DNA from: a virus
Strand: one strand, 5' to 3'
Virus record (IMG/VR): IMGVR_UViG_3300017744_000063
Location: 1 to 34,158 of that record
Length of the DNA: 34,158 nucleotides
Part shown: piece after piece, positions 3,582 to 26,817 of the stretch
How positions within the stretch are numbered: position 1 is the first letter of the stretch
Layout: the number at the start of each line of letters is the position of its first letter
Program-made: the position numbers and the translations under genes
Notes under the pieces: generated by a model
The model's database searches: none
What the model saw: the letters and a program-made list of their open reading frames with translations, nothing else
What the model was told of the DNA's origin: nothing

Positions 3582-4754
3582 ATGGCAAAAGAAAATAGAA
3601 CAACATTAAAAGGATATTTCGAAACAGGAGATATACCTAATCAATCACAATATGGAGATCTTATAGATTCAAATTTAAATTTATCAGATACAAACGCACA
3701 AGTAGCAGCATCAGAAGTAAGCGCATCCGCTTTACTATCTGAAACATTTATATCAGCTAGTGGAGACATATCAGCAAAAGGATTTGTTTCTGCTTCAGGT
3801 TTAATAGTAGGACAAAGTAATGGAAGTGCTCCTTATGTGTCTGCAAGTAATGGAAATATTTTTGTTAGTGGTACAGGTTCTTTTGGACAAATTATAGTAA
3901 ATGAATATAATGATATAAATTTAATTGGTGATATTACAGCTTCAGGTAATGTAAGTGCAAGTGGATATGTTTCTTGTTCAGCTTTAGTAATAGCAGGATC
4001 AGAAATAAGAGGAATAGGAGGTGATGTTACAGCAAGTGGAACAATTAAAGCAGCAGGTTTTGTAGGACCATTAACAACAACAGGAATTACATCCACAGGA
4101 CCAGGAGTATTTACTACATTAGACACAGGTCAAGGAGCTACTGAAGTTCATTTAATGGATCAAAATGTAAGAGAAGCTGATGCAGTTACATTTGCAACAG
4201 TAAATACAGGTCAAGGTGCAAATGAGCTGTATGCGATGAATCAAGATGTTGAAACAACTGATGCAGTTACATTTGCAACAGTAAATACAGGTCAAGGTGC
4301 AAATGAATTATACGACATGGACCAAAATGTCACTTCAACATCAGCAGTAGAATTTACAACAGTAAACACAGGTCAAGGTGCAAATGAATTGTACAAGATG
4401 AATCAAGATGTTGAAACAGATGACATAGTTACATTTGAGGGAGTAGTAGTTAATTCCACAGTAAATAATACTTCTCTTACTCCAGGATCATCAAATAGTA
4501 CTTCTAGATATAAAACACAGTTTAGAGTTGTAGTTGCACCATCATTATTAAATAGTCAAAAATCTGAAGATTTTAAAATCACAAATAGTTTTGTATTAGA
4601 TTCATCTATAGTATACTGTAATTCTAGTGCTGCTTTATCTGTAGAAGTACATTCAGTTTCAGCTGGTGTTTTCTTTTTTAATCTTCATAATACAAATGGG
4701 GGAGGAGCAACATTTAGTGCTTCAACTATAGCTGTTAATTGTATAATAATGTAG
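3582..4754 (+). CDS. Tail fibre / appendage protein with 27-residue repeats
   Basis: The protein has 390 residues and starts one base after the gp15-like stop. The N-terminus (TTLKGYFETGDIPNQSQYGDLI) is an anchor-like segment I know from Bacteroidetes and marine phage fibres. Residues about 45-165 carry SASG motifs (ISAKGFVSASG, VSASGYVSC). Residues about 178-286 hold four copies of a unit close to VNTGQGANELYxMNQDVETTDAVTF. The last 85 residues (from about 305) lack repeats, are rich in Val, Phe and Ser, and probably form a globular tip, as expected of a receptor-binding or trimerising head. Repeats of this sort build trimeric beta fibres. The location between neck and sheath genes fits either a neck whisker or a tail fibre; the sequence does not decide which. 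Confidence 0.75.
   Translation: MAKENRTTLKGYFETGDIPNQSQYGDLIDSNLNLSDTNAQVAASEVSASALLSETFISASGDISAKGFVSASGLIVGQSNGSAPYVSASNGNIFVSGTGSFGQIIVNEYNDINLIGDITASGNVSASGYVSCSALVIAGSEIRGIGGDVTASGTIKAAGFVGPLTTTGITSTGPGVFTTLDTGQGATEVHLMDQNVREADAVTFATVNTGQGANELYAMNQDVETTDAVTFATVNTGQGANELYDMDQNVTSTSAVEFTTVNTGQGANELYKMNQDVETDDIVTFEGVVVNSTVNNTSLTPGSSNSTSRYKTQFRVVVAPSLLNSQKSEDFKITNSFVLDSSIVYCNSSAALSVEVHSVSAGVFFFNLHNTNGGGATFSASTIAVNCIIM
4113..4440 (+). repeat. Four tandem 81-base units in the fibre gene
   Basis: The units encode about 27 residues each around the core TGQGANELY. The first copy is the most diverged (TGQGATEVHLMDQNV). Copies two and three share long identical DNA (for instance CAGTAAATACAGGTCAAGG and the preceding GATGCAGTTACATTTGCAA), which suggests recent duplication by unequal exchange. 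Confidence 0.85.
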
Positions 4755-4765
4755 TATTTTAATAA

Positions 4766-5065
4766 ATGGGAACAAGTAGAAAAACTCCTATAAAATGGAA
4801 TAAAGCAAATTTTTTATGGAATAATAATTCACATACTTGGGAAGATGTAGTATTAATAAAAAGAGCAGCTGGAGAAGATTGGAATACATGGGAACAAAAA
4901 GATAAACAAAAATTAGTAAAATTAATACTAAAAATACACGGCAACACAATTACAGAATCTAAAAAAAGAGAAATCAAACAATATAAAATCAAAGCAAAAG
5001 ACATAAAAATAGCAGTCAAAGAAGTATTAGGAGTTCAAATGATTGCTGAAAACATATCTATTTAA
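4766..5065 (+). CDS. Small basic protein of unknown function
   Basis: The protein has 99 residues. It is Trp-rich in its first half (KWNKANFLWNNNSHTWEDV, DWNTWEQKDKQKL) and Lys-rich and helical in its second half (ITESKKREIKQYKIKAKDIKIAVKEVLGV). I know similar short KTPIKWNK...WNN..WTWEDV proteins beside fibre genes of marine phages but no function for them. There is no membrane segment or signal peptide. Placement after a fibre gene and before other appendage genes suggests a minor structural part or fibre-assembly factor. The start at 4766 has an A/T leader without Shine-Dalgarno. Confidence 0.65.
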   Translation: MGTSRKTPIKWNKANFLWNNNSHTWEDVVLIKRAAGEDWNTWEQKDKQKLVKLILKIHGNTITESKKREIKQYKIKAKDIKIAVKEVLGVQMIAENISI

Positions 5066-5076
5066 TATTTATAAAC

Positions 5077-5637
5077 ATGTATAAATTATTTACAGACAAA
5101 TCAGAACTTTTCGAATGTAGTATATCACTACAAGGAGCAAGCTTAAAAAAATCAAAAGCACGTTTAGTAGTAGAAACTCAAGATTATTCATTATTATTTA
5201 ATGGAACTATTTCTAAAGGAGGTAAATGTGAAATTCCTATTAAAAAGTTAAAAGGTTTAATAGATGAAAATACTTCAGGTAATATTCGTTTAGAAGTTAT
5301 CGCTGAAGATACATTTTTTACACCTTGGGAAAGTGATTTTGAGGTAGAAACAAGTAAAAAAGTAACTGTTGAAGTTAAATCACAAACAACTAAAAAACCT
5401 ATTGTAGAAGCTAAAGTAGAGGTTAAAGTTAAAAATGAAAAACCAACAATTACTGAAAAAGATCATGTTGTAAATTTACTTAAATTATTAATAAAAGATG
5501 ATATAAACGTAAATAATATTTCTTATAAGCGTAATGCATTAAATAATATAGTAGCAACATATTTACAAGAAAATCACGTAGAAAACACAGGTAAAATAAT
5601 AAATGGTGTGTTAAAGGTTCTTGAAAAACAAAAATAA
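5077..5637 (+). CDS. Conserved two-domain protein of unknown function
   Basis: The protein has 186 residues. Residues 1-105 look like a beta-sandwich: MYKLFTDKSELFECSISLQG, then ARLVVETQDYSLLFNG, CEIPIKKLKGLIDENT and FFTPWESDFEVET. A Lys/Val/Glu-rich linker covers about 106-145, and the C-terminal 45 residues form helices (HVVNLLKLLIKDDINV, ALNNIVATYLQENH, KIINGVLKVLEKQ). I have seen this MYKLFTDK...F.C protein in other marine T4-like phages, often near head or fibre genes, without a proven role. The acidic/basic linker would suit a scaffold or adaptor. Its ATG lies only three bases after a TATTTATA string, too close for that string to serve as its promoter in the usual way. Confidence 0.65.
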   Translation: MYKLFTDKSELFECSISLQGASLKKSKARLVVETQDYSLLFNGTISKGGKCEIPIKKLKGLIDENTSGNIRLEVIAEDTFFTPWESDFEVETSKKVTVEVKSQTTKKPIVEAKVEVKVKNEKPTITEKDHVVNLLKLLIKDDINVNNISYKRNALNNIVATYLQENHVENTGKIINGVLKVLEKQK

Positions 5638-5648
5638 AATGGTTATAA

Positions 5649-5918
5649 ATGGCAATCGAAAACTTCGAAAACAAAAACATACAGGACACTTTTCAAAGAA
5701 TAGTCCAAACAGATGGAACTAATCAATTAGCTGATGGAACTGGTTCTATTTTTGTACCAATATCATCTTCACATGCTATAACATCATCATATGCTTTATT
5801 TGCTGTTTCTGCATCACATGAAATTACTTTTGAATTATCCTCATCTCATGCAATAAATGCTAATACAGCAAGTCTTGCAACTAGTTTTATTGGAACATTA
5901 AATGGAGGAAATTTTTAA
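5649..5918 (+). CDS. Short fibre-like protein
   Basis: The protein has 89 residues. It begins MAIENFENKNIQDTFQRIVQTDGTN, a start that recurs in marine phage fibre proteins, and continues with SSSHAITSSYA, SASHEITFELSSSHAIN and NTASLATSF, i.e. the Ser/Ala/His repeats of fibre shafts, ending GTLNGGNF. It may be a short adaptor segment for one of the longer fibres, since the neighbouring 8647 gene ends with a similar short motif (GRIEGGFF). A shortened remnant of a longer fibre gene is also possible. An ATG ten bases upstream (5639) is out of frame with it, so 5649 is the start. Confidence 0.65.
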   Translation: MAIENFENKNIQDTFQRIVQTDGTNQLADGTGSIFVPISSSHAITSSYALFAVSASHEITFELSSSHAINANTASLATSFIGTLNGGNF

Positions 5919-5938
5919 ATATTTATAATAGAATAAAA
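5918..5938 (+). promoter_or_regulatory. Putative late promoter ahead of the large fibre gene
   Basis: ATATTTATA is followed by ATAGAATAAA; the box TATTTATA is at 5920-5927, 16 bases before the ATG at 5944. The downstream bases match the GAACAA element seen at other copies except for C to T. Confidence 0.45.
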
Positions 5939-5943
5939 CAAAT

Positions 5944-8634
5944 ATGGCAAGTACAATAATATTAAAAAACGGAACAGGTTCAGCAATACCTACTACCCTA
6001 GCACAGGGAGAACCAGCAATCAATGTAGACACAGGATTATTTTATTATGGTTCTGGTTCAGCGGGAGCTGTAAAAACATTTAGTAATTTTACAGACATAA
6101 CAGCTAGTTTAAGTGCAAGTTTAGGAGGTAATATAAGTGCAAGTGGAGAAGTAACAGCTGCATCAGGTTCATTTCGTAAAGGAATTAACATTGGAATGTT
6201 AGATAATTCTATAATGAGATTATATAGAGCCGCAGTTAACCAACAACATATATCTGCATCAGGTAAATTAATATTTAATTCTAGCCATTTTCAATTTACT
6301 AATGATGCTCCAGTTCTAGGTCCAAGTTCTTTTTTTCGAGTAGTTGGTGATACTAATATTATAGGAAATGTAACATCCTCAGGTAATATAAGTGCAAGTG
6401 GAGTAGGAACACATATATTAGGGGGACCTTTAACATTAGCAACTAGTGGAGATTCAGTATTAAAAATAATGTCTAATACTACAAATAAAGTTGAACATGA
6501 ATTACATGGTAGAGGTAATGTTCATTCATTCTTATGTTCATCTTCAATTATGAATTTAGGTATAGGAAATAACAACCCAACAGAAAAATTAACAGTATCA
6601 GGTTCTATAAGTGCAAGTGGGAATTTAATTTTAGAAGGTTTTATTTCTTCAAGTACATATATAAGTACTACCCATATAACAGCCTCAAGTAATATAAGTG
6701 CAAGTGGGTTTATTTCAGCTTCATCATTTTCAGGTGATGGTAGTGGTTTATCTAATGTACCAGCTACTAATGCTACTAATGTAGTTACAACATTAAATGA
6801 AGAAGAACATGAAGATGACTTTATATCATTTGTAGATGGAACATCAGGTAATCAAGGAGTAGAAGTATCTAGAAATTTAGTATATAATCCTGCAAAACAA
6901 AGTTTTCAAGTTTTAGGAACTTCAGGAAATGGTCATATAACAGCCTCAGGTAATATAAGTGCAAGTGGGAATGTAATTGCAGCTGAAATAACAGCTTCAG
7001 GTGCTATAAAAGTAGAACATTTACATTCAACAGATGATGCCCAAATAGATGATGATTTAACTGTATCAGGTGATATAAACGCAAATGGAAATATAGTCGG
7101 TGATGGTGCAACACAACTCTCTGGATTAACACATATAACTGCAATAGGTAATATGGCATTTGGTAATCATGGATCAGATTCACACACAATTACAGGAACA
7201 ACATCACATGTAGGACCTATAACTATAAATGGTCATATATCATCTTCAGGAGATATAAGTGGAAGTAATGTAGATGCAGGTGGAAACATAAGCGCAGTAG
7301 GTCACATTACTTCAAGTGGTAGAATTCAAACATTATCCCATATAACAGCCTCAGGTAATATAAGTTCAAGTGGTTATTTATATGGTGCAAGAGTTATTAC
7401 AAACCGACTCCAACACAATAATGGTGTATCAGATATATATTTTGCTAATGGTATTCACGTTGCAGGAGGAACCCATATAACAGCCTCAGGTAATATAAGT
7501 TCAAGTGGAACTATTTCAGGTAGTAAAATACATTCAGCAGCCGATACTTCTGCTACTTTTTTCAATGCTAGAACAAAAACCACAGGATATAAATTAGGAG
7601 GAGTAAAAGTACTTTATAAGTCAGGTTCTGGTGATGTTATTGTTGGTCAAACAACTAATAAAACCATAATAACAGGTTCAAGTGTTGTTTTAGGAAACAA
7701 TGTCTTATCCCACGTAACAGCCTCAGGTAATATAAGTTCAAGTGGAAATATAACAGCAGCAAATGTTCGTCTACCAGGAGCAGGAAAAATATCTTTTGAC
7801 GATTCACTAGATGGAACAGACCAATTTATTAAAGGAGTTGATAATAATATTCTAATAGATGGAGATGATTATGTTAAAATAGCAATAGATAAAGAATTTT
7901 ATGTAGGTACAACTAGTACGTTAGCTAATTTTAAAGTAGATACGGCGGGAAATATAACCTCATCAGGAAATATTGTAATAACTGGAAGTATTAGTTCAAG
8001 TAGACTATTAGTCACTAGTGCTTCTTTTGGAACATCAACAATAGCACCTTCATCATCAGTTACTATTGAAGGAAGATTAAGCTCAAGTGGAGATATAGAA
8101 ACAGAAGGATTTGTATATTCAGAAAATCCTGAAGTATTAGTAAATGGTAGTTGGAGAGCTGCAACTTTAGCTGTTGGTGATTATGCATACCCTGGAAATC
8201 ATGGATTTATGAATACAAACTGGAGTGTAGAAAGTGGTGGAGGTCCACCTGATTATGGTAATACTCAAGTAGGGGGTATGATTATACCTTACAGTTGTTC
8301 GTTAGTAGGAGTAAGAGCAAATATAAATGCTACCGTAGGGGGATCAAACCATTCGGGATCTTTTACTATTTGGGCAGAAAAAATGTTACAAGGAATGGCA
8401 TCTACAGCACATGAACCTGATCTTATATTTGAAATGTATATGCCAACACCAGAAGGCCAAAAAAATTACCAATATTCTCAATTAACAGGAGTAACATCTT
8501 CTCAAGCTGCTAATTATTCTGTATTAACTCCAGGTCATATTCTTAATATAGCTTATAAAAATGAAGCAGGATCATCACATAATGTATTAGGTCATTACTG
8601 TATATTAATTAAAAGAATAAAAGAATTACATTAA
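5944..8634 (+). CDS. Large tail fibre protein with SASGNISASG repeats
   Basis: The protein has 896 residues. The N-terminus (STIILKNGTGSAIPTTLAQGEPAINVDTG, interrupted here only by wording) follows a widespread phage fibre start: a repeat with PT.LA.GE.AIN..TG.FYYG. Residues about 40-700 are filled with beta-repeat motifs of the types TASGNISASG and ITASGNISSSG interspersed with unrelated 40-80 residue segments. From about residue 735 (YAYPGNHGFMN) the repeats stop; the last 160 residues contain QVGGMIIPYSCSLVGVRANI and SVLTPGHILNIAYKN, which look like a jelly-roll tip domain and end in GHYCILIKRIKELH. The shaft-plus-tip layout fits host-receptor binding at the cell surface. It lies in a run of four fibre-type genes. 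Five repeat copies are nearly identical at the DNA level. Confidence 0.85.
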   Translation: MASTIILKNGTGSAIPTTLAQGEPAINVDTGLFYYGSGSAGAVKTFSNFTDITASLSASLGGNISASGEVTAASGSFRKGINIGMLDNSIMRLYRAAVNQQHISASGKLIFNSSHFQFTNDAPVLGPSSFFRVVGDTNIIGNVTSSGNISASGVGTHILGGPLTLATSGDSVLKIMSNTTNKVEHELHGRGNVHSFLCSSSIMNLGIGNNNPTEKLTVSGSISASGNLILEGFISSSTYISTTHITASSNISASGFISASSFSGDGSGLSNVPATNATNVVTTLNEEEHEDDFISFVDGTSGNQGVEVSRNLVYNPAKQSFQVLGTSGNGHITASGNISASGNVIAAEITASGAIKVEHLHSTDDAQIDDDLTVSGDINANGNIVGDGATQLSGLTHITAIGNMAFGNHGSDSHTITGTTSHVGPITINGHISSSGDISGSNVDAGGNISAVGHITSSGRIQTLSHITASGNISSSGYLYGARVITNRLQHNNGVSDIYFANGIHVAGGTHITASGNISSSGTISGSKIHSAADTSATFFNARTKTTGYKLGGVKVLYKSGSGDVIVGQTTNKTIITGSSVVLGNNVLSHVTASGNISSSGNITAANVRLPGAGKISFDDSLDGTDQFIKGVDNNILIDGDDYVKIAIDKEFYVGTTSTLANFKVDTAGNITSSGNIVITGSISSSRLLVTSASFGTSTIAPSSSVTIEGRLSSSGDIETEGFVYSENPEVLVNGSWRAATLAVGDYAYPGNHGFMNTNWSVESGGGPPDYGNTQVGGMIIPYSCSLVGVRANINATVGGSNHSGSFTIWAEKMLQGMASTAHEPDLIFEMYMPTPEGQKNYQYSQLTGVTSSQAANYSVLTPGHILNIAYKNEAGSSHNVLGHYCILIKRIKELH
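6671..7746 (+). repeat. Five dispersed ~37-base near-identical repeats in the fibre gene
   Basis: Copies lie at about 6671-6708, 6934-6969, 7337-7373, 7471-7508 and 7707-7746. All share the core CAGCCTCAGGTAATATAAGT (the first has CAAGT for CAGGT), followed by KCAAGTGG, and encode HITASGNIS[AS]SG. Synonymous positions are conserved, including a rare GCC codon for alanine, so these were copied as DNA and are not merely similar as protein. Related diverged copies occur at about 3938-3970, 6367-6405 and 10271-10290. Confidence 0.85.
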
Positions 8635-8646
8635 TAAATAAATAAT

Positions 8647-10344
8647 ATGCCAGAAGATTATGGATTAAAATTTGATAAATATGAAGTAATATCAGGTAGT
8701 GCTTTTTTATTTAGATCAGGATCTATAGCTAATTCAGCAACAGCTATATCATCTTCATTAAATCAAATTATTGCAGTAACATGCTCAGCTAATTTTAATA
8801 ATAGATTAACAAAATTAACTACTATAAATGCTAATGCCACTATTACTATAACTAGTGGTAGCTCAGATAAAGAAACCTTAGAAAATGACACTAAATTAAT
8901 ATTAAGATATTATTCTGGTTCGTCTTTAAAAAGTGAGGAACCTAAAGATAAAATCCCTTCTGCATCAGACTCAACAATAGACCATTTATTAGGGGGAATA
9001 GAAACAAATATAATTTATATAGACATACCTTTATTAAATAATGATGATTCATTTCAAGTAGCTTATAAAACAGTAAGAGCCTTAACATCTTCTATAGGAC
9101 ATAATAAATTATTTACAGCTGCTTTAGTAGATGATGGAAGTACTTTTCAATTAACTTCTTCTTTAGGAGAAAATATGAAAGTTGGTACTTCTTTTGAAAT
9201 TAGAAATTCTTCATCTTATAAGTTACCTAATGATTATTTATTAAGTTCTTCTGGATTTTTTACTATTACTAGTTTAAATAGTGGATCTGTAGCTACTCCA
9301 GATTTTTCAGGAACAGAAGTTCAAGTAGGGGGAATGCAATTAGGTACTTCATTTATGATAGGAGGAGGTAGTGGGAGTCAAGCATTTGATCATAATATAA
9401 TCCAAGAAGGTTCTGGATTTTTAAATCAAGCTTTTTTTGAAGGATTTCCAATACCACAATCAGCTTCTTTAGGACTACGGTTAGATCCAGATGATAAAAC
9501 AAGTGGAGTAATTACGGGTTCGGGAACATCTAAATTATATATGTCAAGTTCTGGTCAAGTAGGATTAGGAACAACTAACCCTAGAACAGATTTTGACATT
9601 AGAGCTGATCAATTTAGATTTCAAACAAAAGCAGCAGCAAGAGGAATTCGAATAGATGAAGAAGGAAATTTAGAATCTTTTAATGAAGAAGCTGAAAGTG
9701 CAACTACAGGAAGTGAATTAATTTTATCATACACAGCAGGGGGATCAGGATCTGTACAATTAGCAGCAATTTGTAAATTTTTATCAGCTCCTGTTGGTGA
9801 AGAAGAATGTAATAGTGTTCAAACTGCCATAAATTTATTAACCCCACCAACACCTTGGCAATATGTAACAAATGTTTATGGTGAAGATTCAAGAGCAGCA
9901 GAAAAAATATTAAATATAAATTCAGATTTAGGTGCTTCTGTTTTACCTGGAGTAAATGACACAATAGGATCATTAAGATGGATTATTCAATCATCTTCTA
10001 TTGCTGAAGGTAAAGACTTATTTAATAAAAGAACACAAGGAGGAGCAGCAAGTATTACATCAGTAATAGCATCTTCGGACAGAACAGGAGTAACAGCAGA
10101 CATGTTATTTAAAACAGCACAATCAAACACAGATGCCCCCACAGAAGTAATGAGAATATCTTCAGATGGAAAAGTAAGTATAACCGGTAGTTTATCTGTT
10201 ACACAAGCTATAACATCATCAATAGTTTCATCTTCAACAATTTTTATTCAACATGTTACCTCTTCACAAAACATAAGTGCAAGTGGAAATATAAATGTAG
10301 AAGGCACAGGTTCATTTGGAAGAATAGAAGGTGGGTTTTTCTAA
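8647..10344 (+). CDS. Tail fibre protein
   Basis: The protein has 565 residues. It begins MPEDYGLKFDKYEVISGSAF, and contains Ser/Thr-rich beta segments, a GSGSGSQ-type glycine region near residue 240, and a central part with a SSGQVGLGTTNPRTDFDIRAD motif like those in fibre shafts ahead of intramolecular domains. The stretch from about 400 to 450 (INLLTPPTPWQYVTNVYGED) is less repetitive and may be globular. The C-terminus returns to fibre repeats (SSDGKVSITGSLSVT, TSSQNISASGNINVEG) and ends GRIEGGFF. It follows the large fibre gene after 12 bases and probably assembles with it. Which of the two carries the receptor-binding tip cannot be told from sequence. Confidence 0.8.
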   Translation: MPEDYGLKFDKYEVISGSAFLFRSGSIANSATAISSSLNQIIAVTCSANFNNRLTKLTTINANATITITSGSSDKETLENDTKLILRYYSGSSLKSEEPKDKIPSASDSTIDHLLGGIETNIIYIDIPLLNNDDSFQVAYKTVRALTSSIGHNKLFTAALVDDGSTFQLTSSLGENMKVGTSFEIRNSSSYKLPNDYLLSSSGFFTITSLNSGSVATPDFSGTEVQVGGMQLGTSFMIGGGSGSQAFDHNIIQEGSGFLNQAFFEGFPIPQSASLGLRLDPDDKTSGVITGSGTSKLYMSSSGQVGLGTTNPRTDFDIRADQFRFQTKAAARGIRIDEEGNLESFNEEAESATTGSELILSYTAGGSGSVQLAAICKFLSAPVGEEECNSVQTAINLLTPPTPWQYVTNVYGEDSRAAEKILNINSDLGASVLPGVNDTIGSLRWIIQSSSIAEGKDLFNKRTQGGAASITSVIASSDRTGVTADMLFKTAQSNTDAPTEVMRISSDGKVSITGSLSVTQAITSSIVSSSTIFIQHVTSSQNISASGNINVEGTGSFGRIEGGFF

Positions 10345-10809: not shown

Positions 10810-13800
10810 ATGGCAGAACAAATAATTTCACCAGGTGTATTTACAAGAGAAAATGATCAAACATTTTTACCTCAAGGAGTCGGCGCAATAGGTGCTGCAA
10901 TAATTGGACCTACAGTAAAAGGACCTGCATTTGTACCAACAGTAGTAAGAAGTTTCGCAGAATATGAAAGAAGATTTGGAGGATTAAGCTCAGAAACATT
11001 TATACCACAAACAGTACGAGAATATTTAAAAAACGCAGGATCAGTAACTGTAACAAGAGTATTAGCAGGGGGTGGTTACACTTATGCTACATCAACAAAT
11101 GAATTTGTAGCAGTAGCAGTTTCAGCTTCCTCAGCACCTTTATCATCAGTAAACAGAAATGTATTATTAGGAGTAATTTTCCCTTCTAAAGCAACTTCAA
11201 AACCGTCTTTAGACTCAACTACACTAAAAGGAGTTAGTGGTGCATTTGGTCGTGTAAATGAAGATTTTAGTTTAACTCTAGCAGGTACTAATGTTACTTC
11301 AACACAACTTTCTGCTTCACTTAATCCAGCTGCTTCAAATTATGTATTTAAACAATTAGGTTCTAATCCTAATAATAGTAAAAAATCAACTACCACATAT
11401 GGTGGAACAAATACATTACCTGGATACACTTATAATAATTGGAAGTCATTTACTTCTAATATGTTAGCTTCTACTATTAAAGAAGTAACAACAATAACAT
11501 TCCCAGCATTAATGGCTACTGAATCATTTGCTAATGGAATGACTGATGCAGCAATTAATGCAGCATCAAGTAGTATACTAATAACAGCAGGTGATGGTCA
11601 ACAAATACAATTATTACTTAATTCAAGTTCTGTAGGAGGTGGTCACGCAAATGTAGGTGCTATTAATGCAGGTCACAAAACAGGTTCTAATCAAGCTTTC
11701 CTTGATGGATATACAAATTTTATATATTCTAGTTCATTGTATGGAGGTGGGGCTAATAATGGAGCAACAGGAAATGATATATCAGGTTCTCATTTAGTTT
11801 CTATAATAACAGCATCTCTTGCTGCTTTCCCTGGAATTGAATTAGGAGGATCAGGTAATACTCTTACTATTTCAAATGTAGAAGCAGGATCTGCTTTAAA
11901 TGTTGAAATTAAGGGAGATCATTTAACAACTTCAGCTTCTACATCAACAACAACTTCAGGATTAGATATTGATGGATATAAAGGAATTAACGCTGATAGA
12001 TTTATAATATTAGCAGATCAAACAGCTGATATGGCATTTAATGGATTAAGTGGAACAGTAGAAAAATATTCATACGCTTCCACACCATTTATTACTTCAC
12101 AGTTTTTAGATACTAATAAAACAACTAAAGAATTATTTAGATTCCACACATTAGCTCATGGTACTTCATGTAATTCAGATTATAAAATATCAATTGCTAA
12201 TTTAAAAGAACCAGGAGATATAGATAATGAAGAACAATATTCTCAATTTTCTGTAATAATAAGAAAATATTCAGATACTGATAAAAATCCTCTTGTTATA
12301 GAACAATTTAATAATGTTACTTTAGATCCAATTTCTCCAAGATATATTTCAAGAATAATTGGAGATAGATATCCACAATACAATGACACATTAGGTAAAG
12401 TTGAATTATTAGGAAATTATCCAAATGTTTCAGAACATGTTAGAGTAGAAGTAAATGATTTAGTAACAGCTAAAGCATACTCACCAAAATTATCACCTAA
12501 AGGATTTAAAGCAGTATTAGATCCAATTGCAACATCTTCATTAAATGGCGCTTACGGTGATATTATAGTACCATCAGCTTCTTACGAAGGAGAACAAACA
12601 GTAGGAGGAAATTATAGTCCTAGAGCATATTTAGGATGGAAATTTATGGAAAAAGCATTTGATAATTACAACTGGATAAAACCAATACCATCAACTGCAG
12701 GATCTAACATATCAGGTGACTTTAATGTAGAAAATCATCATGGTCATCCAAGTTCAAGCATATATTCAGGTTCATTAAGTTCTTCACTTTCATCATCGGC
12801 AATTGAAGCTTCTCAACTTAAATTTACAGTTTGTTTCCAAGGAGGTACAGATGGTATTAGACCAGATGTTCCAATAGTTACAGGAAATGAAGCTCCAGAT
12901 GCTTTTGTAACAGGATATTCAACAGGAGCTAATTTATATGGATTTGATGTAAATGACACAGCAGCTGCTGGTTATAAAGGATACACAAAAGCAATAAATA
13001 TTCTTTCAAATCAAGACGAATATGACATTAATATGTTAGCTATGCCAGGAGTAAATTATGCGACACATCCTTTAATTGCAAATGCAGGTATTGATATGTG
13101 TGAAGAAAGAGGAGATGCATTTTTTGTAATGGATTTAAATACAATAGATTCCTCAGTAAACACAGCAATAACCAATGTACAAGGTTTAGACAGTAATTAT
13201 GCAGCAGTATATTATCCATGGGTTAAAGTGTTAGATACAGCTAGAAATGTACCAGTAATGGTTCCACCTTCAGTAATTGTACCAGGAGCAATAGCTCAAT
13301 CTGATAGAATTGCAGCAGAATGGTTTGCACCAGCAGGTTTAAATAGAGGTGTATTAGGAAATGTAATTGAAGCTAAAATAAGATTAAACCAAGCTGAAAG
13401 AGATAAATTATATGATGCTAAAATTAACCCAATTGCTACATTCCCACAAACAGGAGTTTGTATTTGGGGTCAGAAAACATTACAAGAAAGATCAACAGCT
13501 TTAGATAGAATTAATGTTAGAAGATTATTAATTACACTTAAGAAATTTATAGCAAGTTCTTCTAAATACTTAGTATTTGAACAAAATACAGATAAAACAA
13601 GAATAAGATTCTTAAATATAGTAAATCCATATTTAGAATCAGTACAACAAAAACAAGGATTATTTGCATTTAGAGTACAAATGGATGAATCAAATAATAC
13701 ACCAGATGTAATTGATAGAAATCAATTAGTAGGTGCAATTTATTTACAACCAACTAAAACAGCAGAATTTATAATACTTGACTTTAATGTATTACCAACA

Positions 13801-13821
13801 GGAGCTACATTCCCTGCATAA
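10810..13821 (+). CDS. 18: Contractile tail sheath protein (gp18)
   Basis: The protein has 1003 residues. The N-terminus (ISPGVFTRENDQTFLPQGVG, then AAIIGPTVKGPAFVPTVV and FAEYERRFGG, YLKNAGSVTVTRVLAG) is the classic T4-type sheath start, and the end (ALDRINVRRLLITLKKFI, FEQNTDKTRIRFLNIVNPYL, GLFAFRVQMD, AEFIILDFNVLPTG) is the conserved sheath C-terminal domain that interlocks neighbouring subunits. The sheath contracts on adsorption and drives the tube into the cell envelope. It is about half again as long as T4 gp18 (659 residues). The extra length lies mainly in residues about 100-400 and about 600-660, which are Ser/Gly/Ala-rich and should form outward-facing protrusion domains. It has its own leader and promoter-like element and is followed by the tube gene. 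Confidence 0.95.
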   Translation: MAEQIISPGVFTRENDQTFLPQGVGAIGAAIIGPTVKGPAFVPTVVRSFAEYERRFGGLSSETFIPQTVREYLKNAGSVTVTRVLAGGGYTYATSTNEFVAVAVSASSAPLSSVNRNVLLGVIFPSKATSKPSLDSTTLKGVSGAFGRVNEDFSLTLAGTNVTSTQLSASLNPAASNYVFKQLGSNPNNSKKSTTTYGGTNTLPGYTYNNWKSFTSNMLASTIKEVTTITFPALMATESFANGMTDAAINAASSSILITAGDGQQIQLLLNSSSVGGGHANVGAINAGHKTGSNQAFLDGYTNFIYSSSLYGGGANNGATGNDISGSHLVSIITASLAAFPGIELGGSGNTLTISNVEAGSALNVEIKGDHLTTSASTSTTTSGLDIDGYKGINADRFIILADQTADMAFNGLSGTVEKYSYASTPFITSQFLDTNKTTKELFRFHTLAHGTSCNSDYKISIANLKEPGDIDNEEQYSQFSVIIRKYSDTDKNPLVIEQFNNVTLDPISPRYISRIIGDRYPQYNDTLGKVELLGNYPNVSEHVRVEVNDLVTAKAYSPKLSPKGFKAVLDPIATSSLNGAYGDIIVPSASYEGEQTVGGNYSPRAYLGWKFMEKAFDNYNWIKPIPSTAGSNISGDFNVENHHGHPSSSIYSGSLSSSLSSSAIEASQLKFTVCFQGGTDGIRPDVPIVTGNEAPDAFVTGYSTGANLYGFDVNDTAAAGYKGYTKAINILSNQDEYDINMLAMPGVNYATHPLIANAGIDMCEERGDAFFVMDLNTIDSSVNTAITNVQGLDSNYAAVYYPWVKVLDTARNVPVMVPPSVIVPGAIAQSDRIAAEWFAPAGLNRGVLGNVIEAKIRLNQAERDKLYDAKINPIATFPQTGVCIWGQKTLQERSTALDRINVRRLLITLKKFIASSSKYLVFEQNTDKTRIRFLNIVNPYLESVQQKQGLFAFRVQMDESNNTPDVIDRNQLVGAIYLQPTKTAEFIILDFNVLPTGATFPA

Positions 13822-13870: not shown

Positions 13871-14356
13871 ATGGCAATAAAATCAACTAACGACATGATG
13901 TTCACAGCATTTGAACCTAAACTACAAAATAGGTTTTTAATGCTTATAGATGGAATACCTTCATACTTAATTAAAAAAATAGCAAGACCAAGTATTTCTT
14001 TTGGAGAAGTAGTTCTTGACCACATTAACGTGAAAAGAAAAATTAAAGGTAAAGCAAATTGGGATAACATTTCATGTGATTTATATGATCCAGTAACACC
14101 ATCAGGTGCTCAAGCAGTAATGGAATGGGTTCGTTTATCACACGAGTCAGTTACAGGTAGAGATGGTTATTCTGATTTTTACAAAAAAGATCTTCATATT
14201 CATACATTAGGACCAGTAGGTGATGTTGTTGAAGAATGGATTTTAAAAGGAGCATATTGCCAAAGTGCAGGTTTTGGAGATATGGATTGGACTTCAGATG
14301 CACCAGTAAATATTAGTATGACTATAGTAATGGATTACGCTATTTTAAATTACTAA
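13871..14356 (+). CDS. 19: Tail tube protein (gp19)
   Basis: The protein has 161 residues, the same size as T4 gp19 (163). It shows the tube pattern: FEPKLQNRFLMLIDGIPSYLIKKIARPSISFGE near residues 13-45, the INVKRKIKGKANWDNISCDLYDP strand pair, AVMEWVRLSHESVTGRDGY, and a C-terminal GAYCQSAGFGDMDW plus MTIVMDYAILNY. Stacked hexamers of this protein form the inner tube through which DNA leaves. It sits 49 bases after the sheath gene and is followed by a strong terminator, so sheath and tube can be expressed at high, separate levels. The beta-barrel folds of gp19, Hcp and lambda gpV are related. Confidence 0.93.
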   Translation: MAIKSTNDMMFTAFEPKLQNRFLMLIDGIPSYLIKKIARPSISFGEVVLDHINVKRKIKGKANWDNISCDLYDPVTPSGAQAVMEWVRLSHESVTGRDGYSDFYKKDLHIHTLGPVGDVVEEWILKGAYCQSAGFGDMDWTSDAPVNISMTIVMDYAILNY

Positions 14357-14377
14357 AATTTAATTTATATAAAAAAG

Positions 14378-14402
14378 AAAGCGCCTATTTTGGCGCTTTT
14401 TT
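14378..14402 (+). terminator. Intrinsic terminator after the tail tube gene
   Basis: An eight-base GC-rich stem (AAAGCGCC at 14378-14385 with GGCGCTTT at 14392-14399), a six-base loop TATTTT, and a run of six Ts (14397-14402) followed by GTTTTCTTT. It is by far the most GC-rich hairpin of the area and starts 22 bases after the tube stop codon. Confidence 0.85.
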
Positions 14403-14453: not shown

Positions 14454-15203
14454 ATGAAAGAAACAACAAACCAATTTCCTTCTGAGGAAGTTACATTACC
14501 TTCAAAAGGTTTATTGTACCCACAAGATTCTCCCTTAAGTAAAGGAATCATTGAAATGAAATATATGACTGCTCGTGAAGAAGACATATTAACAAATCAA
14601 AATCTTATAGAAAATGGTACAGTAATAGACAAATTACTTAAATCATTAATAGTAACTTCTATAGATTATAATGATTTATTATTAGGAGATAAAAATGCTG
14701 TATTAGTTGCTGCACGTATCCTAGGATATGGTAAAGATTATACATTTAATTTTAATGGTGAAGAAAAAACAATAGACCTTACAGAAATTAAAGATTCAGA
14801 ATTAGATGAATCATTAATTAAAGAAGGTAAAAACGAATTTGATTTTGAATTACCAACATCTAAAATATCAGTTACATTTAAACTTTTAACTCATGGTGAT
14901 GAACAAGCTATTGATAGAGAAATTAAAGGTCTTAAAAGAATTAATAAAAATACATCAGCAAGTTTATCTACTAGAATGAAATATGTAATTACTTCAGTAA
15001 ATGGTGATTATGATACAAAAACTATTAGAAATTTTGTAGATAATCAATTATTAGCAAGAGATTCTAGAGAATTAAGAAATTATATAGCTAAAATTCAACC
15101 AAATGTAGATTTAACTTTTGAATATGAGAGTAAAAACGGGGATCTCAAAAAATCTACAATACCTGTTGGCCTTAACTTTTTTTGGCCTGACGCCGAGCTA
15201 TAG
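14454..15203 (+). CDS. Tail assembly chaperone / baseplate protein (gp26-like)
   Basis: The protein has 249 residues and matches the T4 baseplate (gp26-type) family: FPSEEVTLPSKGLLYPQDS, then GIIEMKYMTAREEDILTNQ, IENGTVIDKLLKSLIV, and a C-terminal NLTFEY-like strand ending in FFWPDAEL. In T4-like phages gp26 and gp51 are thought to act together as the tape-measure chaperone. Here the gene stands between tail tube and tape measure, exactly where long-tailed phages keep the chaperone pair that is often joined by a programmed frameshift. A seven-T run (15177-15183) falls on the Phe-Phe of FFWPD near the end, and the coding-like frame continues past the TAG at 15201 in the +1 frame. The start follows an AT-rich leader without Shine-Dalgarno. 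Confidence 0.8.
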   Translation: MKETTNQFPSEEVTLPSKGLLYPQDSPLSKGIIEMKYMTAREEDILTNQNLIENGTVIDKLLKSLIVTSIDYNDLLLGDKNAVLVAARILGYGKDYTFNFNGEEKTIDLTEIKDSELDESLIKEGKNEFDFELPTSKISVTFKLLTHGDEQAIDREIKGLKRINKNTSASLSTRMKYVITSVNGDYDTKTIRNFVDNQLLARDSRELRNYIAKIQPNVDLTFEYESKNGDLKKSTIPVGLNFFWPDAEL

Positions 15204-15432
15204 GAACGTATTGTTCGCTCAGATTCACGACTTAGTGTACCATGGAGGCGGTGGATTCATACACTCGGAAGTATATAATATGCCAGTTTGGTTAAGACGT
15301 TTTCACACTCATAAAATAAGTGAATGGAATACAAAACAAAATGAAGAAATTGAAAAAGCTAAAGGAAAATCAACTCCTTCTAAAAAACCAACAGGACCTA
15401 ACATAAGTCCATCATCAACATATAATTTTTAA
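15124..15432 (+). CDS. Chaperone extension (gp51-like), probably made by +1/-2 frameshift
   Basis: This frame is open from before 15118 to 15432. The part before about 15196 overlaps the gp26-like gene and has no recognisable character, whereas the part after it is clearly protein-like: YRNVLFAQIHDLVYHGGGG, FIHSEVYNMPVWLRRFHTHK and a charged Lys/Glu helix. The pattern of Q-I-H-D-L-x-Y-H-G, V-Y-N-M-P-x-W-L-R-x-F is what I expect of the second half of a T4-like chaperone. No convincing start codon exists at the junction; the nominal start given here (ATG 15124) lies inside the upstream gene. A -1 shift at the T run reaches TGA after two codons, so only +1 or -2 joins the two. Separate initiation remains possible. 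Confidence 0.6.
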   Translation: MRVKTGISKNLQYLLALTFFGLTPSYRNVLFAQIHDLVYHGGGGFIHSEVYNMPVWLRRFHTHKISEWNTKQNEEIEKAKGKSTPSKKPTGPNISPSSTYNF

Positions 15433-15433
15433 T

Positions 15434-15465
15434 CAAAGACATCATCGATGTCTTTGTTTTTTTTT
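15434..15465 (+). terminator. Intrinsic terminator after the chaperone gene
   Basis: A nine-base stem (CAAAGACAT at 15434-15442 with ATGTCTTTG at 15448-15456), loop CATCG, followed by nine Ts (15457-15465). It directly follows the stop at 15432. Confidence 0.88.
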
Positions 15466-15495: not shown

Positions 15496-17649
15496 ATGGA
15501 CGAAGAAGATAAAATTTCAAAAGAAGATTTAGATAATCAGAAAAAATCTGAACAAAATGAATTATCTATTAAGCAGGTTTTAAATGATCAATTAAAAGCC
15601 CTTAAAGAAATAGCAGGTGCAAAAGCTGAATCTGTTGATCTTTCTAAACAAGTTCTTCGTTTCCATAGAGAAGTAGATGGATATATAGGTGAAGAATTTG
15701 ATAAAACTAAAGAAGTTGTAAGAGAACGTGATGCAATTAATAAAAATTTAAAACACACGGCTAGATTAGAAAAAGAAGTAAGAGATGAGGTTAGTCGTTT
15801 AAATGAGTTAGCTAAAGAAGGTGATGAATTAGCTGGAGATGAAGCTAATAATTTAAGAGAAAAATTAGATATTTTAAATGACATAAAAGCAGGATTAAAG
15901 GAAGAAGAAAAATCTAGAATTCAAATAAACGATAAAATGGGAATATTTGATAATGTCATTCGTGGTATTAAAGATATACCTTTTATTGGTGAATTAGGAT
16001 TAGCAGATGATTTATTAGAATCTATGCAATTAGCTGCTCAAAATGGTAAAAATGTATTTGTTGAAGGTTTTAAGTCAATAAAAGATGCTTTTTTAGAAGC
16101 TTTAGGCCCATTAATATTTGCAGCTACAATAAAATCTGTTATGGAAATTAGTAATCAGATTAGAGATGTAGGAAGAAATCTAGCAATAAGTAAAGTAGAA
16201 GCAGGTATGTTTAGGGCAGAATTAGGATTTGCATCTGCTACCTCTAATGACATATTAGCTACTTCTGAAGGTTTAATAGAAGCTAATATGCAATTAAACC
16301 AAATTAGGGGAACAGGAGTTAAATTTACTACTCAACAACTTTTAGATGTAAATAGATTACTTAAAGCTGAAGTTTTAACTGTAGAAGCAGCAGGAGAATT
16401 ATCTAGATTAGCTAGTGTAACGGGTCAAGGTATAAGAGAAGCTTACTTAAATCAAATAGATGGAGTATTAGCAGCAGAAAAGGAATCTGGAGTAAGATTA
16501 GACATTAAAACCACATTAGAAGCTACAAATAAAGTATCTGGTCAACTTAGAGCTCAATTAGGAGCTAATCCTGCATTAATAGCTGAATCAGTAGCCCAAG
16601 CCAAAGCCTTAGGAATGGAATTAGAAGATGTAGCTGCAGCAGGAAGAGCACTATTAGATTTTGAATCATCTATTACTAATGAATTAGAAGCAGAATTATT
16701 AATTGGTAAACAACTTAATTTAGAAAGAGCAAGAGCAGCAGCATTAACGGGTGATTATCAAACACTAACAGAAGAAATCAATAAAAACGTAGGTGATTTT
16801 TATGAATTTAGTAAATTAAATGTTTTACAACAAGATGCTTTAGCTAAATCTGTAGGTATGTCAACAGATGCTTTATCTGATCAATTATTACAAAAAGCAG
16901 ATTTAAATAAATTAGCACAACAAGCAAGAGACGAAGGTAGAGATGATATAGCTAAAAATTTAGAACAATTATCAGTAGGAGATAAATTAAATGCTAATAT
17001 GGACAGACTTAAATCTATATTTGGTGATATATTAGGTATTGTAACTCCTTTAGTTGAATTGTTTGGTGGAATGGTACAATTTATAAGTGAATCTACAGCA
17101 GCTATTGTTATATTATCAGGTGCATTAGGTGCAATGGCAGCTAAACAAGCATATTCAGCTGTACTTTCTATAGGAAAAGCGGTAGCAGATATATTTTCAG
17201 GAAATGCTAAATTTGGTCTTCCAGGGGTAGCAATGTCTCTAGGTGCTGTAGGAGCTATGATGGCAGCTATAGCATCTGCCAAAAGTGTAAAACTAGCAGA
17301 AGGAGGTATAATAGAACCTACACCTGGTGGTACTTTAGCTACAATTGGAGAAGCAGGGGAAGCAGAAGCTGTTATACCTTTAAGTAAATTAGAACAATTA
17401 GGTTTTGGTGCACCACCACCACCTATGCCCCCACCTGTTCCATCACCTTTAATTCCACCACCACCACCAATTATGGAATCTAAGGGAATAAATAAAGATG
17501 ATTTAATAACAGCTTTAAGAACAGTTGAAAAAGAAAAAACAAAACAAAGTTTAATAATAAGAGAAAAAGATTCAAATTATGCTGATGCAAATCCTATGAA
17601 TAATCAAGGAGATAGCTACCAGATAAAATATGAAACAAGTTTTAGTTAA
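15496..17649 (+). CDS. Tail tape measure protein
   Basis: The protein has 717 residues. It is nearly all helical: a charged coiled-coil N-terminal third (KEVRDEVSRLNELAKEGDEL), a hydrophobic segment near 202-215 (ALGPLIFAATIKSV), a long middle helix rich in Ala/Leu/Glu, and two further hydrophobic segments near 535-550 (AAIVILSGALGAMAA) and 577-595 (GVAMSLGAVGAMMAA). Then follows AEGGIIEPTPGG...IGEAGEAEAVIPL (about 600-628), a motif typical of the C-terminal end of tape measure proteins, and a poly-proline segment at about 640-659. The protein sets tail length, is threaded inside the tube, and is thought to leave with the DNA and aid passage through the inner membrane. Position after the chaperone pair agrees. 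It corresponds in role to T4 gp29 (590 residues). Confidence 0.87.
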   Translation: MDEEDKISKEDLDNQKKSEQNELSIKQVLNDQLKALKEIAGAKAESVDLSKQVLRFHREVDGYIGEEFDKTKEVVRERDAINKNLKHTARLEKEVRDEVSRLNELAKEGDELAGDEANNLREKLDILNDIKAGLKEEEKSRIQINDKMGIFDNVIRGIKDIPFIGELGLADDLLESMQLAAQNGKNVFVEGFKSIKDAFLEALGPLIFAATIKSVMEISNQIRDVGRNLAISKVEAGMFRAELGFASATSNDILATSEGLIEANMQLNQIRGTGVKFTTQQLLDVNRLLKAEVLTVEAAGELSRLASVTGQGIREAYLNQIDGVLAAEKESGVRLDIKTTLEATNKVSGQLRAQLGANPALIAESVAQAKALGMELEDVAAAGRALLDFESSITNELEAELLIGKQLNLERARAAALTGDYQTLTEEINKNVGDFYEFSKLNVLQQDALAKSVGMSTDALSDQLLQKADLNKLAQQARDEGRDDIAKNLEQLSVGDKLNANMDRLKSIFGDILGIVTPLVELFGGMVQFISESTAAIVILSGALGAMAAKQAYSAVLSIGKAVADIFSGNAKFGLPGVAMSLGAVGAMMAAIASAKSVKLAEGGIIEPTPGGTLATIGEAGEAEAVIPLSKLEQLGFGAPPPPMPPPVPSPLIPPPPPIMESKGINKDDLITALRTVEKEKTKQSLIIREKDSNYADANPMNNQGDSYQIKYETSFS

Positions 17650-26424: not shown

Positions 26425-26817
26425 ATGAATAATCGATTATACTGTACATTTACAACAGTAGATGCTTATGAAGAAGTAGCTAATACTATTCAGACATCTT
26501 ATGTAATTCTTTTTAATAAACTTTTTGTATTAGAAAGTTTGGATAAAGAAAAAATTATGCTTACATATAATGTAGACATGAATAATTCTACAAAAGAATC
26601 TATGGTAGATAATACTATTTTAGTACACAGAAAAAAACAAACAAATACTTTATATACAATTAATGCACTTAATGAATTAATAAAGGAATTAAACAATGGA
26701 ATTTTAGATAAAACATTCGCTATAAATTGGAATAATTATAAAAATTGTATACTACTAATTCAAGCAGAAGGATTTAATCGTATAGATACAAAAGTAAAAG
26801 ATATAATAAACTTATAA
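26425..26817 (+). CDS. Conserved small protein of unknown function
   Basis: The protein has 130 residues. It begins MNNRLYCTFTTVDAYEEVAN, has strand-like segments YVILFNKLFVLESL and IMLTYNVDM, a conserved-looking centre HRKKQTNTLYTINALNELIKE, and FAINWNNYKNCILLI near the end. I recall the RLYCTFTT...HRKK.TNTLYTINALN pattern in other marine T4-like phages, always without a function. It reads like a small alpha/beta protein. Its stop overlaps the start of the next gene by one base (TAATG), so it is coupled to the cassette of leader-bearing proteins and shares their putative late promoter. A role in their folding or in head morphogenesis is possible but not shown. Confidence 0.7.
   Translation: MNNRLYCTFTTVDAYEEVANTIQTSYVILFNKLFVLESLDKEKIMLTYNVDMNNSTKESMVDNTILVHRKKQTNTLYTINALNELIKELNNGILDKTFAINWNNYKNCILLIQAEGFNRIDTKVKDIINL

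What the first reader, a model, noticed from the sequence alone, without database searches (positions are those of the whole stretch)
15177..15432. Tail assembly chaperone likely made by +1 or -2 frameshift
The gp26-like gene and a protein-like downstream frame overlap between tail tube and tape measure, the standard place for frameshifted chaperone genes. The upstream frame has a seven-T run over FF of FFWPD and stops at TAG 15201; the downstream frame is +1. A -1 shift on the T run meets TGA (15188-15190) within two codons, so the common -1 mechanism cannot work; +1 or -2 can, either on the T run or near GAG-CTA-TAG. T4 keeps the two functions as separate genes.
Basis: partly seen in the sequence, partly recalled or inferred. 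Interest (0 to 1): 0.63.

Follow-up and report, generated by a model that had tools for sequence, protein, structure and literature searches.

The report
Phage tail chaperone by forward frameshift
This virus of bacteria very probably makes two versions of a protein that helps build its tail by having some ribosomes skip forward one letter at a run of T's, whereas several distant relatives of T4 appear to slip backward at the same place and T4 itself uses two separate genes.

Summary
ORF 14454-15203 is a tail assembly chaperone (TAC-N; Pfam T4_baseplate, relative of T4 gp26/gp51). A second frame ending at 15432 encodes its C-terminal extension (TAC-C). In all 155 related loci with a complete overlap (59 clusters under 70% identity) the extension is in the +1 frame, entered at a near-invariant TTTTTTTGGCCT. 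Wobble conservation changes frame exactly there. 24 of 59 clusters have no in-frame ATG/GTG/TTG, and the records searched carry one copy of each part, so separate initiation or a second gene is unlikely. Variants TTT-CTT-TGG and TTT-CTA-TGG argue against transcriptional slippage and place the shift at or before the second Phe/Leu codon, not near GAG-CTA-TAG. Best model: +1 slip of Phe-tRNA from UUU to UUY; a -2 slip is not excluded. In other T4-superfamily phages the homologous extension is in the -1 frame from the same FF codons, usually T_TTT_TTY. T4 has two genes. The window clade thus appears to be a +1 variant of a known strategy. An unexplained synonymous GC-rich tract surrounds the slip site. 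No expression data exist; peptides would settle it.

The parts
14454..15203 (+). TAC-N: zero-frame tail assembly chaperone, 249 aa, ends NFFWPDAEL
   Evidence: Pfam T4_baseplate E=1.7e-5; phrog_150 'baseplate hub' 3e-12; AlphaFold pLDDT 90, best PDB match HK97 tail assembly chaperone Z 4.7
15177..15188 (+). Slip block TTTTTTTGGCCT (TTT TTT TGG CCT in frame 0)
   Evidence: This exact 12-mer in 135 of 155 loci; the other 20 differ by a few bases
15177..15183 (+). Inferred slip: Phe-tRNA from UUU 15177-15179 to UUU 15178-15180, next codon read 15181-15183 (model A); or -2 slip of the tRNA at 15180-15182 to 15178-15180 (model B)
   Evidence: Inference from variants CTT/CTA at codon 2
15181..15432 (+). 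TAC-C: +1-frame C-terminal extension FGLTPSYRNVLFAQ...STYNF, 83 aa and stop TAA
   Evidence: Open and conserved in +1 in all relatives; Pfam DUF6760 E=1.1e-5, 25.9 bits, just under its 27-bit cut-off; profile match to -1 extensions of jumbo T4-like phages 96%
15188..15190 (+). TGA that ends a -1 shift
   Evidence: Sequence
15201..15203 (+). Zero-frame stop TAG, formed by the +1 codons TAT AGG (Tyr-Arg)
   Evidence: Sequence; stop position varies from +15 to +27 nt in relatives
15117..15176 (+). Upstream stretch with raised synonymous GC in the clade; purine-rich GGAGG-like tract in many relatives but not in the window
13871..14356 (+). Tail tube protein, upstream neighbour
   Evidence: phrog_4542 tail tube 9.9e-27
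15496..17649 (+). Probable tape measure protein, downstream neighbour (717 aa)
   Evidence: Position; the equivalent gene of Flavobacterium phage immuto is annotated tape measure; only a weak phrog_167 match, E=0.57

Best explanation
The locus encodes one tail assembly chaperone gene expressed as two proteins. Most ribosomes end at TAG 15201 and make TAC-N (249 aa, the equivalent of T4 gp26). A fraction move into the +1 frame at the U-run and make TAC-NC (about 325 aa, ...PVGLNF-FGLTPSYRNVLFAQ..., the equivalent of T4 gp51). Shown by comparison: the extension is conserved protein in the +1 frame, joined at this block, with no conserved alternative start and no second gene found in the clade. 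Inferred: the shift is a +1 slip of peptidyl-tRNA-Phe from UUU to the overlapping UUY with the next zero-frame codon (UUU, CUU or CUA) waiting in the A site. Inferred from the lambda G/GT model: many TAC-N and few TAC-NC coat the tape measure protein, and the TAC-C part brings in tail tube subunits. The ratio is unknown.
For: 155 of 155 complete loci, 59 clusters, have the extension in +1. Periodicity switches frame across TTTTTTTGGCCT, and positions 3-11 are constrained in both frames: F/L-W/Y/F-P in 0 and F/Y-G/S/T-L in +1. No ATG/GTG/TTG in the +1 frame in 24 of 59 clusters; in 20 of 155 loci a +1 stop lies 5 nt before the block. Single copy of TAC-N and TAC-C in eight records searched, two of them described as complete genomes, against two T4_baseplate genes in T4. 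The pattern TTTYT[ACG]TGGCCTGACG found 11 true homologs, all TTT-CTA-TGG giving F-Y-G-L-T in +1; none had CTC, CTG, TTA, TTG or TTC, so codon 4-6 is read as F or Y in the shifted frame. UUU to UUU, UUU to UUC and CUU to UUU re-pair well under +1 at codon 1. Distant RM378 also has TTT TTT TGG with a +1 open frame.
Against: No expression, proteomic or ribosome-profiling data. The first-codon +1 model has no obviously slow A-site codon in the majority form (TTT is common: 36.6 per 1000 in the window). GXN1 (TTC TTT CGT) does not fit first-codon re-pairing. No positionally conserved RNA stimulator was found. A -2 shift reaches the same frame. Most relatives are metagenomic contigs of related phages, so counts are not independent.
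Confidence: 0.88

Rival explanations
1. Same two proteins, but by a -2 slip: the P-site tRNA on the second codon (UUU, CUU or CUA) moves back two bases to UUY at 15178-15180, adding one residue (NFFFGLT).
For: Also decodes codon 4-6 as F/Y, so it fits the CTA variants; re-pairing on UUU is perfect in the majority form and positions 1-2 are always T. -2 is known in phage Mu (PMC5009743). LIS04 TTT TTT AGT fits -2 as well as first-codon +1.
Against: CUU and CUA tRNAs would re-pair on UUC only with a first-position G-U, and CUA also with U-C. It does not explain why TTA, 59% of Leu codons in these genes, is never seen at codon 2. Most known access to the +1 frame is by +1.
Confidence: 0.22
2. The +1 frame is a separate gene with its own start (e.g. 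ATG 15124 or TTG 15166 in the window).
For: In the window such starts exist in the open frame; 35 of 59 clusters have some ATG/GTG/TTG; the records of immuto and Mel-JY01 list a separate hypothetical protein.
Against: 24 of 59 clusters have none. The commonest candidate, TTG at -11, is forced by Ile-Gly codons ATT GGN of frame 0. The GGAGG-like tracts do not go with starts (Fisher p 0.6). In T4, gp51 is a T4_baseplate protein with a longer C-terminus, i.e. the extension works as part of a long form.
Confidence: 0.05
3. Transcriptional slippage on the seven-T run makes mixed mRNAs.
For: A seven-T run may be long enough in some systems (general knowledge).
Against: The run is broken in TTT-CTT-TGG (12 of 155 loci) and TTT-CTA-TGG (11 homologs of a pattern scan) with the same +1 extension.
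Confidence: 0.02
4. Sequencing error or decayed gene in the window.
For: Homopolymers are error-prone.
Against: The same frame relation recurs in 155 loci from separate assemblies, including isolate genomes.
Confidence: 0.01

Closest known systems
T4 gp26 / gp51 (T4-like TAC genes; Vladimirov et al. 2022, read only through citing papers)
   Same: TAC-N part is the same Pfam family; gp51 is a long form with a C-terminal extension; C-terminal profile chain window - Kyanoviridae - gp51 (80% and 77% hhalign probability)
   Different: T4 carries two genes; here one gene and a frameshift. The direct profile match of window TAC-C to gp51 is not significant (0.25%).
-1 frameshift TAC genes, lambda G/GT type; here an open -1 extension also seen in Kyanoviridae, PA5oct, 121Q, GAP32, Atu_ph07, XacN1
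   Same: Homologous protein, homologous extension (window to jumbo phages 96%), same FF codons
   Different: Direction +1 instead of -1; base before the T-run is not T in 58 of 59 clusters, whereas 11 of 13 -1 phages have T_TTT_TTY
Phage Mu -2 and halovirus HSTV-2 probable +1 tail frameshifts (PMC5009743)
   Same: Tail chaperone isoforms made by a shift into the +1 frame
   Different: Their protein families and slip motifs were not compared here; the motif of this clade is UUU-YUW-UGG-CCU without a stop in the A site
prfB +1 frameshift
   Same: CUU to UUU P-site slip would occur in some variants here (CTT TTT TGG)
   Different: No stop codon in the A site and no consistent Shine-Dalgarno just upstream

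Membership tests
Tail assembly chaperone pair TAC-N/TAC-NC | Gene between tail tube and tape measure | tested here: met
   Tube 13871-14356 (phrog_4542); downstream ORF is tape measure by position and by immuto annotation
Tail assembly chaperone pair TAC-N/TAC-NC | TAC-N homologous to known TAC-N | tested here: met
   PF12322 over cut-off (25.1 against 24.5 bits); T4 gp26 and gp51 in the same family
Tail assembly chaperone pair TAC-N/TAC-NC | TAC fold | tested here: inconclusive
   HK97 TAC 2ob9 is the top VIA match but Z only 4.7, 92 residues aligned, rmsd 3.9
Tail assembly chaperone pair TAC-N/TAC-NC | C-terminal extension homologous to known TAC-C | tested here: inconclusive
   hhalign 96% with the putative -1 extensions of jumbo T4-like phages, 80% with Kyanoviridae, which match gp51 at 77%; direct match to gp51 0.25%
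Tail assembly chaperone pair TAC-N/TAC-NC | Two isoforms made in a fixed ratio, binding tape measure and tube | not testable with these tools
   Needs expression and binding data
Canonical -1 X_XXY_YYZ frameshift | Extension in the -1 frame | tested here: not met
   -1 frame stops at TGA 15188; extension in +1 in all relatives
prfB-type +1 frameshift | Stop codon in the A site and close upstream SD | tested here: not met
   A-site codon TTT, CTT or CTA in the preferred model; few SD-like sites within 15 nt
Mu-type -2 frameshift | -2 movement, extra residue at the junction | tested here: inconclusive
   Not separable from +1 by sequence alone

The most novel reading that the evidence does not exclude
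Within one protein family the same pair of Phe codons works as a -1 frameshift site in some lineages and as a +1 site in others, the direction following the base before the U-run. In the +1 clade, probably infecting Bacteroidota whose genes start without Shine-Dalgarno pairing, an upstream synonymous GC/purine-rich element would push ribosomes forward.
Probability: 0.35. Interest if true: 0.72.

Novelty: new variant of a known kind. Interest (0 to 1): 0.5.

Why it matters
T4 was the textbook exception to frameshifted tail chaperones. A large uncultured clade of T4-superfamily phages appears to make the gp26/gp51 pair by a forward shift, and other lineages by a backward shift at the same codons. 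That gives a natural experiment on what sets frameshift direction, explains a gene piece that annotators leave as 'hypothetical', and suggests an ancestral state from which T4's gene duplication could have come.

Tried and rejected
Shift near GAG-CTA-TAG: rejected, stops in relatives come earlier and +1 residues from FGL on are conserved. +1 slip at the second codon as the general mechanism: rejected by TTT-CTA-TGG (CUA to UAU). Transcriptional slippage, independent start, second gene: see rivals. A conserved RNA structure: RNAalifold gave no common structure in 86 sequences; only a modest excess of folding at -45..+15 (z -0.89). SD just upstream as in prfB: absent in most. The TAC-C model found no convincing PDB match. 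PDB sequence search with both profiles: none. Vladimirov et al. 2022 is not held. The TAC-C alignment could not be used to scan genomes.

Full report
What is there. The window is a virus contig of 34158 bases from a contractile-tailed phage: sheath 10810-13821, tube 13871-14356, ORF 14454-15203, then a probable tape measure gene 15496-17649. ORF 14454-15203 is a T4_baseplate protein (PF12322, 25.1 bits against a cut-off of 24.5; phrog_150). A second frame, +1 relative to it, runs from before the end of the ORF to TAA 15430-15432.

Conservation. tblastn found the pair in Flavobacterium phages immuto, Microcystis phage Mel-JY01 and a 484-kb uncultured phage, and scans of viral contigs gave two sets of 80 loci. 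In every locus with the complete overlap (155 loci, 59 clusters at under 70% identity) the extension is in +1. The block TTTTTTTGGCCT is the centre: 135 exact, 12 TTTCTTTGGCCT, 3 CTTTTTTGGCCT, 2 TTTTTTTACCCT, 3 others. Upstream the variable positions are the third positions of frame 0; downstream they are the third positions of frame +1. Between them both frames are constrained: F/L, W/Y/F, P in frame 0 and F/Y, G/S/T, L in +1. After CCT frame 0 is free and ends within a few codons, its TAG often made by the +1 codons TAT AGN.

Why not a separate gene. In 24 of 59 clusters the +1 frame holds no ATG, GTG or TTG between its upstream stop and the block; in 20 of 155 loci that stop is 5 nt before the block. 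Genes checked in the window start with ATG after A/T-rich leaders without SD, unlike the candidate TTGs; but ATG 15124 means the window alone could not exclude a start. The eight records searched hold one TAC-N and one TAC-C each, adjacent, while T4 holds two T4_baseplate genes.

Where and how. The open windows of all relatives leave only TTT TTT TGG CCT NNN. CTA changes the +1 codon at positions 4-6 from TTT (Phe) to TAT (Tyr). C or G at that position, which would give Ser or Cys, was not seen in homologs. So this codon seems to be decoded in the shifted frame, and the shift happens before it: either +1 with Phe-tRNA moving from UUU to UUY, or -2 with the second tRNA moving back to the same place. 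I prefer +1, because its re-pairing is good in every variant of the clade and because TTA, 59% of Leu codons, is never seen at codon 2, as if a fast A-site codon were avoided. That last point is an inference.

Comparison. The T4 superfamily as surveyed here shows three arrangements. The extension lies in the -1 frame in 13 phages (Kyanoviridae S-H25 and Melnitz, P-HM1, Milchi, SeKF_64, Vibrio D506, PA5oct, Atu_ph07, Phosso, 121Q, GAP32, XacN1, LR756511), 11 of them with T_TTT_TTY at the same FF codons. It lies in +1 in the window clade, Rhodothermus phage RM378, Bacillus phage SP-15, Listeria phage LIS04, Streptococcus phage GXN1 and one contig. T4 has two genes. The extensions are homologous by profile: window to jumbo -1 phages 96%, to the Firmicute +1 phages 96%, to Kyanoviridae-type phages 80%; those to the T4 gp51 tail 77%; but RM378 and the direct gp51 comparison are not significant. 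The base before the T-run is not T in 58 of 59 +1 clusters. A Fisher test (p 1e-10) overstates this because of shared ancestry. On a tree of TAC-N neither direction forms one group and the labels need five changes in the best tree, but deep branches are long and only a few changes are forced by well-supported forks.

Structure. TAC-N folds with pLDDT 90; the best PDB match is the HK97 tail assembly chaperone, Z 4.7, weak but top of the list. TAC-C is a small helical piece without a convincing PDB match.

An unexplained signature. Third-position GC is about 0.13-0.21 through most of the gene, then 0.32, 0.46 and 0.40 in the 30-nt bins at -60, -30 and 0, and stays raised to about +120. GAG is 55% of Glu codons near the site against 14% far from it. 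GGAGG-like motifs at -45..-15 occur in 28 of 59 clusters against 10 expected from far codon usage (18 with local usage). They do not go with +1-frame starts, and the window itself lacks one. A fold excess peaks at -45..+15 but no common structure was found. It may be a stimulator; that is untested.

Known or new. Frameshifted tail chaperones with -1, -2 or +1 are known, with T4 the exception (PMC5009743). Short and long separate genes in T4-like phages are known from Vladimirov et al. 2022, which I could read only through citing papers; one of these says that poly-T -1 signals in T4-like TAC genes were also described there (PMC12846349). I found no paper on a +1 case in this family, but the library lacks most subscription journals. 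I therefore call it a new variant of a known kind.

Noticed in passing
15117-15296: Local GC of 43-45% around the overlap in a 31% GC contig; clade-wide rise of synonymous GC around the slip site and a purine-rich tract before it in many relatives, cause unknown.
   Followed up: partly
15434-15456 and 14375-14402: Terminator-like hairpins followed by T-runs between TAC and tape measure, and between tube and TAC-N.
   Followed up: no
26817-29741: 974-aa Cys-rich protein with many repeats of the type GCTDPxATNYDPxAxVDDGSC.
   Followed up: no
3582-10344: Tail-fibre-like ORFs rich in the repeat HITASGNISSSG.
   Followed up: no
10810-13821: Tail sheath of 1003 aa, larger than the sheath profile it matches best (496 positions); that match covers mostly the C-terminal half.
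   Followed up: no
L001, L002: Public records annotate the extension as a separate or truncated hypothetical protein, and miss the joined product.
   Followed up: partly
L306-L311: Contigs binned into Bacteroidota MAGs (Winogradskyella, Flavobacteriaceae, Flavobacteriales), and one in a Woesearchaeota MAG, carry the same slip block; probably co-binned phage contigs, hinting at Bacteroidota hosts.
   Followed up: partly
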